DNA of 64,000 nucleotides, taken from NCBI GenBank assembly GCA_021399435.1, contig JAJTUP010000027.1, positions 806,001 to 870,000 of the forward strand, in the 5' to 3' direction. Below the pieces are notes generated by a model. That model was not told the DNA's origin. It did no database searches and saw only the letters and a program-made list of their open reading frames with translations. Of the stretch, positions 12,404-31,069 are shown piece by piece. Origin of the DNA: Diaporthe sp. PMI_573 (taxonomy: Eukaryota > Ascomycota > Sordariomycetes > Diaporthales > Diaporthaceae). Every line of letters starts with the position of its first letter. The stretch's first letter is position 1. Made by a program: the position numbers and the translations under genes.

Positions 12404-14726
12404 TCACCCGGCCATAACGCTCCTTCCCCCATCCTCCGTGACCCTGTTTCGCACGCACACCTTGAGCACACCACTGCCAAGCTTCGTCGCCGCACCCTCC
12501 TCACTGACACCCACTACCGCGTTGGGCGAGAACACCAGCGCCTCGCCCACACGCAGCCCCACGATCTGCGCAAACAGGTTCGCTGCCGCCTGTCTATGGC
12601 CCATCGTCGCCCCGGGCCCCTTGAGGCTCAACGTCCCGACCGCCCCGACCATTCCATCCAGCACATCATCAACTCCCGAGTCGGAAGAAGCACCACTCTC
12701 ACCCACGGAACCAACACCACCGCCACCACCAGCCGCGCGAGCCAGCATCCCAGTCGTCTCCTCCGCACCGGCCAAGTGCCGCCGCAGCGCCCGCAGCCCT
12801 ACATATTACGTTAGTCCTGCTACGGGTCCTGAAGTGATGCGGCCTGGGACATTCCAAAACATGAAAGACGGGGGATACGTAGAAGGAGAAGAATGATACT
12901 GACACTAATGGTGGCGTTAGTCCTGCTACAGATCCTAAAGTGTTGCATTCTAGAACATTCCAAAACATGAAAGTCGGGGATCCGTTGCGAGAGAAAAGTG
13001 ACACTGACCTCGGGGGACGTGAAACGGTGCACCACCGTCACGCTACACAGATCCAGCAGCCGGGGTGACACAGTGGGCTCCTGAGTCGAGATCACCACTC
13101 GCGCCCCCAGGTGCCGCTGCAGCCGTATCGTCGCCAGAAGCTGCTCCGTGAGGGCTGATGCTTCGCCGCTATCGTTCATGTATTTGTGAGCTTCGTCCAG
13201 CGCCACTATCCGCCCTACTCGCCTGGCATCCTGCTCCAGGAAGAGGGACAGGCAGATGTTGAAGAGCGCGCAGGCTCCCTCGGGGGTCACGCATGGGCAG
13301 CTTAAATCAACGATGGTAAGCTGGCCAGTGCATGGGGCCCAGTCGTTGCCGGGGGGCTTGGCTACGGCGACAACAGCCTTCTTTTTCTTCTTCTGCGTCG
13401 CGACAGCCTCCTGCGGTGGCGCCATGAACGACTCGAGCGTTTCAAGCCGCTGCGAGAGAGGCACCCTCTGACTGTCGGTCAAGTCCTCGCGGGCCAACAT
13501 AGCCTTGAAAGCGCGGTAGTCGAACGACTCGCCAGTCTGCTGTTGCCGCAGGCGTAGGTCGCGTAGCACGCGGTTGACGACATGCATGTATAGCGGCATG
13601 GCCTCACTCTTCTTCACGGCCATTAGGTCCATCATGCGTTTCGTTGTAAGGTCTTGCTCCCTGATGCTCAGCGGCTCGATGGTGACATTCGGGAGCCCCG
13701 CGTACGTCCGCCGCATAGTCGCGCTGATACCTGTCAGTCACCTGCTGGGGAGCCCAAGGTGTTGCATTCTGCAACATTCCAAAACATAGTGGACGGGGAA
13801 CCGTGAGAAAGGAGAAGAACAAAAGATGCTTACATGTTGGTCGGCGCGCACAGTACGCGAACACGCACGGCCGCGTTGGTCGACAGGTAGGCCGCCTCGC
13901 ACGGGCTGCCCTGGCTGTCGTTGATGAAGGTGTCATAATGGAAGACGATGCCCGTCAGCGGGCGCGGCAGCTCGTTTGCCACTGACGGGAACAGGCTGTT
14001 TTCCAGCAGGCATGACAGCGTGTGGCTCTTGCCGGAGCCCTGGCTGCCGCAGATGAAGGTGCTCGATGGTGCGGCTACGTTGTAGTAGAATAGCTCGTCC
14101 GATTGGTTGTCACTGGCGTCGCCGGCGAGGAGGCCGTATTGCGAGAAAGGGTGGTCAAAACCACCAGATGATGGGCCCTCTCGTTCGACTCGGACCCGGG
14201 CGGTCTCGGTGAAGATCGGGGCAGTCTTGATCTCGTCCAGGCCGCCGCCAACATCCTTGTCGGCGCGGTGAAGGAGCTGACGGCGGCGGTCCATTGTCTG
14301 CTTTTTCATAAGCTCTGGCAACGTCGCGTGTGTGACGGGTACTGGCCCTGGCGCTTCTGCTTTATCCGTCTCTTGCTTGGAAGCTGTTGTGTCAGATGAG
14401 ACTTCGGACTCGCTTGAGCTACAGGAAGACTCCTCGCCGCCCGCCTGAGGAATTGAGAAGTCAAAGGTGAATCTGGTAGGTGATTTCCGAGTTTGTGTCA
14501 GGGCACTCTCTGTGGTGGACGCCTTCGATTTAGGAGCGTAGATTGTGGAGGGACTTCTCTTCTCTTCCGAAGGCAAGAAAGTGAACAAGGGAGATTCACG
14601 CCAGTTAGAGCCCCAGTTGATTTCTGATTTGGAAGCACTGTTGTCAACTTCTGTGGTTGGTGCGGCGGCTGAGGCTTGAGATGGCCTGCTCTCCGGCTGA
14701 GTGCCGCCCGTCTTTATATGCGCCAT
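12404..14726 (-). CDS. HerA/FtsK-type P-loop ATPase domain protein
   Basis: Spliced model: exons 14726-13834, 13723-13009, the single base 12904, and 12798-12404; 2004 nt, 667 residues. Residues 1-170 are Ser/Thr-rich and disordered. Walker A is GSQGSGKSHT near residue 225, a hhhhDE Walker B is RIVALDEAHKYM in exon 2, followed by ARVVISTQEPTVSP (HerA-type sensor region) and VVHRFTSPE; the last exon ends LRVGEALVFSP and a VRNRVTEDGG tail, as in a family of fungal AAA-like proteins whose substrate is unknown. All three introns are copies of one repeated sequence. Splicing at CAG|CGCGAC (13723) gives APTNIATMRR and keeps frame. The one-base exon creates a Trp codon (E-W-L-R), which fits the family as I remember it. 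Without it the last exon is read out of frame. cDNA has not been seen. Confidence 0.8.
12799..12903 (-). repeat. Introner-like element, ATPase intron 2B
   Basis: 105-nt intron, GTCAGTATCATTC...ATGTAG, lying in tandem with copy 2A. It shares TTTCATGTTTTGGAATGT and CCGTAGCAGGACTAACG with it; the middle (CCCAGGCCGCATCAC) is more diverged. Confidence 0.88.
12904..12904 (-). other. Predicted one-nucleotide exon (T)
   Basis: This single T lies between the acceptor TAG of one element copy and the donor GTCAGT of the next. Keeping it gives GAG-TGG-CTG-CGG (E-W-L-R) and an open frame to the stop at 12404; skipping it shifts the last exon. Equivalent outcome: the downstream copy is spliced first, after which the upstream acceptor borders TGG. 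Confidence 0.65.
12905..13008 (-). repeat. Introner-like element, ATPase intron 2A
   Basis: 104-nt intron, GTCAGT...CATTAG, with ACGGATCCCCGACTTTCAT, GTTTTGGAATGTTCTAGAAT and GTAGCAGGACTAAC, the last holding a CTAAC branch-point-like motif. It directly follows the Glu codon of TSPE in phase 0. Confidence 0.88.
13724..13833 (-). repeat. Introner-like element, ATPase intron 1
   Basis: 110-nt intron, GTAAGC...ATCAG. It shares with the other copies a CTTCTCC tract, CACGGTTCCCCGTCC, ATGTTTTGGAATGTTGCAG and AATGCAACACC. It contains a perfect hairpin TGTTGCA-GAA-TGCAACA. Its 3' end (GGTGACTGACAG) is the most diverged of the four copies. Confidence 0.85.
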
Positions 14727-15710: not shown

Positions 15711-16762
15711 ATGACGCCGCAGGCCGACACGGACTCGCCGCCACCAACAACAGCCGCAAGCCCCGACCCGTTCTCCCGGCCGCGGCCGCGGCCTCCCAGG
15801 TCGCCCTCCCAGGCTGCCAAGATACGAGTTCAGAACAGGCGGCGCCAGTACCTGGACAATAATCCGGGCTACCTCTCCTCGGCGGACAATCAACTTGCCG
15901 GTAAGCCCTCTGGATCTCACTCTTCTCCCTGATTTTCCCCTCAGAGACCAGCTCTGGGCATGTCTCTGGTTTCTGAGCTGGGAGCGGGCCCTTGGGGGAG
16001 GCTGTACTTGTGAGAGCTACCACCCTGTTGTTCCTCATGAGATCCTACGGTCCGGCAGACAGCCAGGCTGACCAGCTCTCTTGCGATGGTCCTTCACAAG
16101 CTCACACTCACACGCCGAGTTGCCCCAAGGAGGACCCGGGACCCCACTGACACATGACCACAGACCCGGAACTCTACGACACCCTGGTCCGCAAGTTCCA
16201 GACGCCCGCCGAGCGCGAGGAGGAGGTTCGCGCAAGGGGCTGGGGCAAAGTCCTCGAGTCATCACTGATGCGCGGCGAGGACCGCCTGGACAGGGTGGCC
16301 TCGTCTCTCGCAGGTGACAGGCCGCGGCCGGAGGGGCCTCAGCCCCCGTCATTTTCATCGTCCCGTGGGGAATTAGCTTCCGCGGCGAGCGACGGACAGG
16401 GATCCGCCACTGCCACAGCAGCAGCACATTTTACCATCGATGCGGATCTCGCTGGATCCGGGCCCGAGACAAAGGAGGAGGGCCGCGCCGCGTGGGAGGA
16501 CTTTCTGCGGGAGCGGTTCATACGCGGCGGTGACGACGACTTCGACTATGGCCCCGTGGACGGGGATGAGAGTCTTGATGAGCTGGAGTCCCGTGACCGG
16601 GAGGAGGAGTGGTTCGATGGGGAGGAGCCGGAGTGGGCAAGCGATGGGAGTGATGGCAGTGCTGGGACTCCTGGGGTTGTTGGCCCAGACGGCGAGCCAG
16701 GGAAGAGGAAGGGACCGAGGGAGAGGGTGTTGACTGGGGAGACTGGTGTCCAGGATTACTGA
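15711..16762 (+). CDS. CCD97-like (coiled-coil domain containing 97) protein
   Basis: Exons 15711-15900 and 16164-16762, joined by a 263-nt GT-AG intron in phase 1 (G|AC, giving NQLA-DPELYDTL); 262 residues. The N-terminus is Pro-rich, then a basic segment (IRVQNRRRQYLDNNPGYLSS), then the family's C-terminal domain: WEDFLRERFIRGGDDDFDY, DESLDELESRDREEEWFDGEEP. Acidic F/Y-D-Y and E-E-W-F-D motifs are typical of the CCD97-like C-terminal domain, a family linked to the spliceosomal SF3B complex in animals. The fungal role is inferred. The protein is strongly acidic in its second half. It faces the ATPase gene across a divergent spacer and converges on the GH43 gene. Confidence 0.8.
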
Positions 16763-29572: not shown

Positions 29573-31069
29573 ATGGTAAGTGGGTGGCTGCAGCGGAGGG
29601 AGAAGGGCCCGCGCTGCAAGAGCTCCAGCGACTCAGCGTCCAAGGGGACCACGCGAAGCCCCTCGCGGCCAAGCTGGGAGCCGTTCCTTGGTTGGGCTTT
29701 GCTCGTGAACTTCCCTCTCACATCTAGCTGCCAGGCCGGCGACATGCAAAGGTGGTCCGGTATGGGCTTCCAGAGCCGGAGGGAAAAAAGCGAGGACTTC
29801 TCCCTCTTCTGCCTGGTGGTTCGCCGGTCACCTTCTGGTCAATAGGTGGCTCGTGGCCGGCGTCAGTACCCGACCGGTGGAGGGCGCAAAGGAGGCAGTG
29901 CCAAAATTTGGTTGAAGCCCGTGGTAATAGGTTTAGGGAGGCTAGTCGCCTCCCTCGACTCAGTAGTAAGGGCGTCGGATTAGTAGATGCTTACATTTTG
30001 GTATGCGGTGTAGTCTTTTCTTCGGCTGCCGAGGCCCGGCTAGTCCCAGCTCGTCCGGGAGGAGTTGAGGCTGCACTGGGGGAGCTATGTCTGCGTGCCC
30101 GTGAGCCGGTCTGATTGTAAACCCGAAGAATTCCGGCCACGATTCAGTGTAGTACTCGGGGGCTCGGATAGGTGTAGGTGGTTGGGTCTCTTCTTGGGAT
30201 CTGGCTTCTGCGACCTGGTGGCTGTGACTTACTTAGTGGCCTACTGCTAACTTGGATGCAGAGCCAGGGCACGTCCAAGGTCCATGCTGGCGACTGCAAG
30301 GACAATACCGTCGCCAACCTCGAGATCCGCATCTTCAAGCTAGATAATGGTAGTCAGAATCACATGGGCGCCCTTTGGAAGAAATTGGCCAAGGAGCGCG
30401 CATTCCTCTCTTCCAAGGTGGACAAGAAGCCCAGCCAGGATGCAGCCATGACCGTCGAGGAGCACGAGAAGTTCATCACCGAAATCGCCGAGATGGCTAC
30501 TCGAGCCCACCTTCGCAAGGTCCTCAAAGAACAAGGTCAGGGTGATCGTCAAGGACGTTGTTGAGGACGCCATCGAGGGTGTTGTCGAGGATGTCATCGA
30601 GGACGTCGTCCACGAGAAGCTCGCGACCATATGCCGCACGCAACAGCAGCATGGCCGCCAGATTGCTGCCATCATGAACTGGATTCGGGATATCTGGTTG
30701 ATGCGATGTGAAGATCCAAGGATTTGGAAGCCACTGGCACGACGGGCCCGATCACCAAACCCCCCGTGAGTCCTTACACTACTGACTGGCACGGCCGGGA
30801 CCCCCGACCTTACTCGGCCTGCTACCTAACACGCTGGACCGCCCGCAGAAAGCCGAGCCGCGCCCGGTCTCCCGGGAGCAGGACTCTGAGCTCCGAGGCG
30901 GCGGCATGACCATCGGCTTCAACTGCTGCCGTGGTCACTGCAACTGCCGTAGGCATCACTCTTCTCCTGTCACGGATCCCCGTCCTTCATGTTTCGGAAT
31001 GGCCTAGAATGCAATACTCTAGGACCCGTAGCAGGACTAACCTCATACCTAGACGAGACGTGCTGCTGA
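29573..31069 (+). pseudogene. Hypothetical gene with frameshifts and a Cys-rich tail
   Basis: Several pieces look coding on the plus strand: an ATG at 29573 directly before a GTAAGT donor (acceptor 30261); frame 1 from 30262 (SQGTSKVHAGDCKDNTVANL, EIRIFKLDN, LWKKLAKERAFLSSKV); then frame 2 (VIVKDVVEDAIEGVVEDVIE) from about 30540; then frame 1 again (LEATGTTGPITKPP) to a GTGAGT donor at 30770; then KAEPRPVSREQDSE and a tail TIGFNCCRGHCNC-HETCC ending at 31069. The tail is continuous only if the introner-like intron 30949-31052 is removed (C|AC). Two frame changes without clear introns suggest a decaying gene, assembly errors or unrecognised introns. I know no family for it. Confidence 0.45.
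30949..31052 (+). repeat. Introner-like element in hypothetical gene
   Basis: 104-nt candidate intron, GTAGGC...ACCTAG, opposite in genome orientation to the ATPase copies but sense to its own host gene. It shares CATCACTCTTCTCC, CACGGATCCCCGTC, TTCATGTTTCGGAATG, CTAGAATGCAATACT and CCGTAGCAGGACTAAC with the other copies. It lies 17 kb from them. Confidence 0.85.

What the first reader, a model, noticed from the sequence alone, without database searches (positions are those of the whole stretch)
12799..13008. Two back-to-back introner-like introns separated by a one-nucleotide exon
Copies 2A (13008-12905) and 2B (12903-12799) of the same element each have donor GTCAGT, GTAGCAGGACTAAC and a TAG acceptor, with a single T between. 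Only keeping that T gives E-W-L-R and an open frame; dropping it shifts the last exon. Either a one-base exon is spliced, or 2B is removed first and 2A next (recursive or twin-intron splicing). One-base exons are extremely rare; I recall one case reported in Arabidopsis. The tandem arrangement suggests an intron inserted one base beside an intron of the same family.
Basis: partly seen in the sequence, partly recalled or inferred. Interest (0 to 1): 0.92.

Follow-up and report, generated by a model that had tools for sequence, protein, structure and literature searches.

The report
One-base exon between mobile introns
In a Diaporthe fungus, two mobile introns landed one base apart in the same gene, so that one DNA letter between them appears to be kept as a one-base exon, which shows a route by which the smallest possible exon can arise.

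Summary
On the minus strand, intron 2A (13008-12905, 104 nt), one T (12904) and intron 2B (12903-12799, 105 nt) split a conserved TGG (Trp537) codon of a P-loop NTPase-like gene. Of 154 single-intron, 1,773 two-intron and 2,873 nested schemes tried, one gives the conserved protein: both introns removed, T kept. Trp is invariant in 117 of 117 homologues covering the site. A protein database holds the spliced 667-aa protein, 100% identical, from a 2,886-nt contig of source 'lgn', which does not splice; the template is probably a transcript, but a control for transcripts was negative. 2A and 2B are not duplicates of each other: they belong to two introner subfamilies (97% and 95% to their own consensus, 77% to each other), hence two insertions one base apart. 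A second pair in the same genome (permease gene, C138) also has a one-base spacer that restores the conserved frame, with one weaker alternative. It is not a [D1,2] stwintron. Likely mechanism: sequential intron-definition splicing, either order. One-base exons are published (Arabidopsis APC11, Fusarium CYP621A). New here: origin by adjacent introner insertion, apparently twice in one genome. RNA reads are needed.

The parts
12904..12904 (-). one-base exon, T, first base of the TGG codon for Trp537
   Evidence: Only this T, with both introns removed, gives the conserved protein among the schemes tried; Trp in 117 of 117 homologues covering the site, of 120 listed; T retained in P0001
12905..13008 (-). 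introner 2A, subfamily A, 104 nt, GTCAGT...GACTAAC...TAG
   Evidence: 97.1% to the subfamily A consensus, 3 substitutions; 42 places at E<=0.001, itself and 2B included, with 40 of 247 first-look candidates scored
12799..12903 (-). introner 2B, subfamily B, 105 nt, GTCAGT...GACTAAC...TAG
   Evidence: 95.2% to the subfamily B consensus, 4 substitutions and 1 inserted base; 77.4% to 2A; relatives
13724..13833 (-). intron 1 of the same gene, a diverged introner nearest to subfamily C (GTAAGC...CAG)
   Evidence: 72% to the subfamily C consensus (entered one base short there), aligned; its removal fits P0001
13834..14726 (-). exon 1 of the P-loop NTPase-like gene (ATG at 14726)
   Evidence: P0001 identity
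13009..13723 (-). exon 2
   Evidence: P0001 identity
12404..12798 (-). exon 4 (after the one-base exon 3) to the stop codon
   Evidence: P0001 identity

Best explanation
Two introner-like elements of different subfamilies inserted independently and seamlessly, one base apart, into one exon (GAG|T|GGCTG) of a P-loop NTPase-like gene in a Diaporthe fungus. Each is a complete U2-type intron with its own donor, branch site and acceptor. They are spliced one after the other, each recognised across the intron; either order gives the same product, so the T between them remains as a one-base exon that completes the conserved Trp codon. Shown: the sequence, uniqueness of the reading among the schemes tried, conservation of Trp, two subfamilies, existence of the spliced protein from an intron-free template. 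Inferred: that this template is mRNA, that splicing is sequential and by intron definition, and how the elements were inserted.
For: 1 of 1,773 two-intron schemes, 0 of 154 single-intron schemes and 0 of 2,873 nested schemes give TSPEWLRALRR. Trp in 117 of 117 homologues that cover the site, out of 120 listed; the other 3 are fragments that end earlier; the 117 include P0001. P0001: 667 of 667 residues identical to the spliced model, source 'lgn' (which I take to be Logan), contig 2,886 nt. Proteins from the same source run on into what read as introns in P0022, P0023, P0026 and P0124, P0157, so its gene caller does not splice. 2A is 97.1% to consensus A, 2B 95.2% to consensus B, 2A to 2B 77.4%, which speaks against a tandem duplication. 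All 85 distinct full-length copies begin GT and end AG, and their flanks show no direct repeat beyond chance (4-base repeat 1 of 85, shuffled mean 0.36; 5 to 8 bases 0 of 85). A second pair with one base between them in a permease gene, keeping VVICQQTGVKV.
Against: No RNA reads were available. P0001 could come from an intron-free allele; its 2,886-nt contig would fit either an mRNA or the 2,323-bp genomic span of the coding region. A control on the neighbouring CCDC97-like gene found no full-length spliced hit, only an unspliced 202-aa exon on an 18,998-nt contig (P0243, 99% over 76% of the query), so presence of transcripts of this species in the database is not shown. How often the T is skipped is unknown; the one-step product would be frameshifted. 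The excess of one-base spacers rests on two cases.
Confidence: 0.88

Rival explanations
1. One-step excision: 2A's donor pairs with 2B's acceptor and the T is lost as part of a 210-nt intron.
For: Both sites are of the family's usual kind; the stwintron literature reports one-step missplicing of almost the entire double intron (PMC12403724, abstract and Discussion read).
Against: Gives a frameshift and a 592-aa product without the conserved C-terminal part; P0001 has the T. Perhaps a minor, unproductive isoform.
Confidence: 0.05
2. A [D1,2] stwintron: 2A interrupts the donor of an external intron (G + TGTCA) and a second reaction follows.
For: After removal of 2A the joint reads GAGTGTCAGT, which does hold an overlapping GTGTCA donor.
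Against: That donor gives RFTSPEAAGAAAALGR, out of frame; 0 of 2,873 nested schemes give the conserved protein.
Confidence: 0.02
3. 2A and 2B arose by tandem duplication of one intron, with the T as a duplication by-product.
For: Same orientation, same family, adjacent.
Against: Each is far closer to a different dispersed subfamily (97.1% to A, 95.2% to B) than to the other (77.4%). The T belongs to the conserved Trp codon, so it is ancestral coding sequence.
Confidence: 0.02
4. P0001 is encoded by an intron-free genomic allele of another strain, so it says nothing about splicing; the one-base exon then rests on frame and conservation alone. (Not exclusive with the best explanation.)
For: Close relatives, such as P0002 (82%, 19,645-nt contig), give the whole protein from a source that does not splice, so they seem to lack these introns; a 99% identical CCDC97-like exon lies on an 18,998-nt contig, and no spliced form of that gene was found.
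Against: Would require absence of three introns, one of them 28% diverged from its consensus, in an allele 100% identical in protein.
Confidence: 0.13

Closest known systems
One-nucleotide exon of Fusarium CYP621A (PMC12940212, 2026; abstract, Results and Discussion read)
   Same: Fungal nuclear gene, one base between AG and GT, required for a conserved motif (glycine of PKG); 18 reads confirm it in two species.
   Different: There the base is shared by 20 orthologues, the sections that I read do not describe the flanking introns as repeated elements, and the authors propose base loss and adoption of a cryptic exon. Here the flanking introns are dispersed introners and the base is ancestral coding sequence.
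One-nucleotide exon of Arabidopsis APC11 (PMC4674806; abstract and Discussion read)
   Same: A constitutive one-base exon; [quoted passage not shown]
   Different: Plant gene, introns not described as mobile in what I read; tested with reporters, whereas nothing here was tested at the bench.
Fungal introner-like elements (PMC4457414, listing and one passage; PMC9860276, abstract and passages)
   Same: Near-identical introns in many unrelated genes, complete introns inserted without target-site duplication.
   Different: No report of back-to-back copies leaving a one-base exon, and none of introners in Diaporthe or Diaporthales, was found in my searches.
[D1,2] stwintrons of Hypoxylaceae and Xylariaceae (PMC8469720, abstract and Discussion part 1; PMC12403724, abstract and Discussion)
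   Same: Two adjacent U2 introns, in some cases repeated across the genome, that need two splicing reactions; seamless insertion.
   Different: In a stwintron the inner intron splits the donor of the outer one; here both introns are complete and independent, and order does not matter.

Membership tests
[quoted passage not shown]
   118 distinct matches, some partial, among fetched loci and the window; 40 of 247 and 40 of 289 first-look candidates scored; flanks unrelated by eye and 1 near-duplicate among 85 by script
Fungal introner-like element | Copy is the complete intron, donor to acceptor, removed from mRNA | tested here: met
   85 of 85 distinct full-length copies begin GT and end AG; for this gene P0001 fits removal. 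The population test of open joints is weak: 73 of 82 open, against 63 and 68 of 82 with one or two bases dropped and 34 of 82 unspliced
Fungal introner-like element | No target-site duplication | tested here: met
   Direct repeats at the flanks of 85 copies not above shuffled partners for lengths 2 to 8
Fungal introner-like element | Predicted stable secondary structure | tested here: met
   Consensus A, B, C z = -3.0, -3.5, -3.9; but the two copies at this locus score only -0.6 and -0.3
Fungal introner-like element | Presence or absence variation among relatives | tested here: inconclusive
   Protein level only: relatives give uninterrupted full-length proteins from a source that does not splice; relatives' DNA not available
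One-base exon | Single base flanked by usable AG and GT, needed for the reading frame and a conserved residue | tested here: met
One-base exon | Retained in mature mRNA | tested here: inconclusive
   P0001 fits exactly, but its contig is not proven to be cDNA; the control on the CCDC97-like gene was negative
[D1,2] stwintron | Inner intron splits the outer donor between base 1 and base 2 | tested here: not met
   That reading is out of frame
Recursive splicing | A splice site is regenerated by the first reaction | tested here: not met
   The conserved product needs no splice site created by a first reaction: both GTCAGT donors and TAG acceptors exist in the DNA

The most novel reading that the evidence does not exclude
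Introners in this fungus are inserted preferentially right beside an intron that is already there (one base away), for example by an insertion reaction coupled to the spliceosome at an existing splice site. One-base exons would then be a recurrent by-product of introner activity rather than freak events.
Probability: 0.25. Interest if true: 0.82.

Novelty: new variant of a known kind. Interest (0 to 1): 0.7.

Why it matters
One-base exons are accepted but their origin is open; the Fusarium paper asks how such a small exon can evolve. Here a route can be read from the sequence: two mobile introns, each with dozens of relatives in the same genome, landed one base apart and left one ancestral base between them. 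Because the same genome seems to hold a second case, the arrangement can be tested as a class: how often such a base is kept, in which order the introns go, and whether introners favour sites beside introns. It is also a trap for annotation pipelines, which may call one 210-nt intron or break the gene.

Tried and rejected
Tandem duplication of one intron: disfavoured by subfamily membership. [D1,2] stwintron, nested schemes and single introns: rejected on frame. Alternative donor 4 bases in (GTGTCA, keeping GTCA): open, 668 aa, but replaces Trp by Val-Arg, so not favoured. A misread extra T in the assembly: unlikely, because the T fits the conserved codon and P0001. Whether folding of the pair favours one-step excision: no signal, the 250-nt region folds no better than shuffles (z 0.33; 121 of 200 shuffles as good). 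Target-site bias: weak post-hoc palindromic bias, left as an aside. CCDC97-like control for transcripts in the database: negative. The permease search showed no full-length identical protein; a transcript, if there is one, may be hidden behind P0124 (94% identical, in a database clustered at 90%). The exact-core tandem scan found only this locus and missed the permease pair, so it is not a census; the close-pair scan found 3 places against 2 for its reversed control, and the 3 were accepted as introner pairs by their sequence. A further pattern scan (two GCAGGACTAAC 75-105 apart) did not complete.

My first donor picker misplaced donors of GTTCGT and GTTAGT copies and was replaced. One search failed on a wrong search expression and was redone with an alignment. 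The splice join was wrong and was redone. Intron 1 was entered one base short and correctly.

Full report
What is there. The window is part of contig C138 of an 83.7-Mb genome. A protein named as Diaporthe sp. PMI_573 lies on a contig of the same length, 891,552 bases, so I take the organism to be that strain; a passage of PMC12526002 lists it as GCA_021399435.1.

The gene. It runs from ATG at 14726 to the stop at 12404. With intron 1 (13833-13724), 2A and 2B removed and T kept it encodes 667 aa; without T, 592 aa with a shifted end. Several homologues are named P-loop containing nucleoside triphosphate hydrolase by their sources; the only Pfam match of P0001, AAA_16, is below its cut-off.

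Is the T exonic? I enumerated schemes with GT or GC donors, AG acceptors, introns of at least 40 nt and sites within 24 nt of the region. None of 154 single introns, exactly one of 1,773 pairs, and none of 2,873 nested schemes restores TSPEWLRALRR. The Trp is present in 117 of 117 homologues that cover the site (P0001 among them); 3 of the 120 listed are fragments that end before it. The protein database holds the complete spliced protein, identical at all 667 residues, from a 2,886-nt contig of source 'lgn', which I take to be Logan (P0001). Proteins of that source in the same searches run on into what read as introns (P0022, P0023, P0026; P0124, P0157), so that source does not splice, and P0001 should come from an intron-free template. 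mRNA is the simplest source. An intron-free allele is not excluded, and a control with the neighbouring CCDC97-like gene found only an unspliced exon on an 18,998-nt contig (P0243). I therefore count P0001 as strong but not conclusive.

What the introns are. Among loci fetched from this genome and the window I found 118 distinct matches of one family, some of them partial. They fall into three subfamilies with 104-nt consensus sequences, A, B and C. 2A is an A copy (97.1%, three substitutions); 2B is a B copy (95.2%, four substitutions and one insertion); they are 77.4% identical to each other. Intron 1 is a diverged relative nearest to C (72%). Of the matches, 85 distinct copies are full length; all 85 begin GT and end AG, and their flanks show no direct repeat beyond chance. 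The consensus sequences fold into a stable hairpin (z -3.0 to -3.9), while 2A and 2B themselves fold no better than shuffles. The family matches fungal introner-like elements. A relative's permease protein reads into an introner-like sequence at another site (P0157), which suggests that the family is active in related fungi too; that reading is mine.

How it arose and works. Because 2A and 2B belong to different subfamilies, they came by two insertions, one base apart. 2B has more changes from its consensus and may be the older, but that is weak evidence. Each intron has its own donor, branch-site sequence and acceptor, so neither needs the other. Removal in either order leaves the T. After 2A goes first, the joint GAGTGTCAGT holds overlapping donors; of the three GT sites there only GTCAGT gives the right frame. 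If 2B goes first I see no such ambiguity, so I guess 2B first; this is untested.

A second case. At C138:713576-713390 (minus strand) a permease gene has a shortened B copy (78 nt), one C, and a second B copy (108 nt) with donor GTTCGT. Keeping the C gives VVICQQTGVKVMPSVIN as in close orthologues; the stretch has the same length in 114 of 120 listed homologues, while the residues at the site vary among distant ones. One of 466 two-intron schemes gives this, none of 103 single introns. But a single intron ending two bases later (acceptor GAG) gives an open frame short of one Gln, so this case is less secure. A pattern scan for a second introner start close behind a branch site found three pairs in the genome, with spacers 1, 1 and 20 nt (the reversed-pattern control gave 2 matches, so the scan itself is not significant and the pairs rest on their sequence). 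Among 24 neighbouring pairs in the fetched loci (spacers up to 1,136 nt) all 24 are on the same strand; BLAST ends put the permease spacer at 20, and the splice-site reading at 1. If spacers were even over 1,200 nt, 0.04 would be expected at 0-1 nt and 2 are seen (P about 8e-4; over 600 nt, P about 3e-3). This is rough: the second locus was fetched because its hits lay close together, and the list of pairs is not a full census.

Comparison. One-base exons are known from Arabidopsis APC11 (PMC4674806) and Fusarium CYP621A (PMC12940212). Introners in ascomycetes without site duplications are known (PMC9860276, PMC4457414). Stwintrons are known (PMC8469720, PMC12403724). My searches for introners together with Diaporthe, with Diaporthales, with micro-exon terms, or with tandem arrangement and recursive splicing showed no report of this combination in their listings (one search listed 10 of 121 papers), in a library that lacks most subscription papers. 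So the kind of exon is known, the kind of intron is known, and the new part is the link: a one-base exon made by adjacent introner insertion, apparently more than once.

Noticed in passing
L100 (C138:713100-713700, outside the window), minus strand 713576-713390: Second back-to-back introner pair with a single C between them in an amino-acid permease gene; keeping C restores the conserved QQTG, with one alternative that loses a Gln.
   Followed up: yes
L034, positions 1501-1728 (C160:334053-334280): An A copy and a B copy separated by a 20-base exon, in what looks like a transporter gene; the frame after the B copy is unclear and the gene may be damaged.
   Followed up: partly
L039 (C144:491500-494500): A gene whose exons look like ribosomal protein S17 (my reading, not searched) carries a B copy and an A copy 67 bases apart.
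   Followed up: no
window 30949-31052, + strand: A further introner copy nearest to subfamily C (90%).
   Followed up: no
window 8116-8009, - strand: Probable GC-AG intron of 108 nt, in frame, in a response-regulator gene (SSK1-like, recalled name).
   Followed up: no
82 introner insertion sites in fetched loci: Weak palindromic bias centred on the joint, mainly A at -6 and T at +6; symmetry score above 4,000 of 4,000 position-shifted controls, but found post hoc and not seen as pairing within single sites (458 of 2,000 shuffles as good). A DNA-cutting enzyme could leave such a mark.
   Followed up: partly
window 15711-16762, + strand: The deposited protein for the CCDC97-like gene (P0245, 211 aa) is 51 residues shorter than the 262-aa reading, so the deposited annotation seems over-spliced here.
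   Followed up: no
P0022, P0023, P0026: Relatives of the P-loop gene seem to have an intron at a different place (about LDLSCP), so intron gain in this gene may have happened more than once.
   Followed up: no
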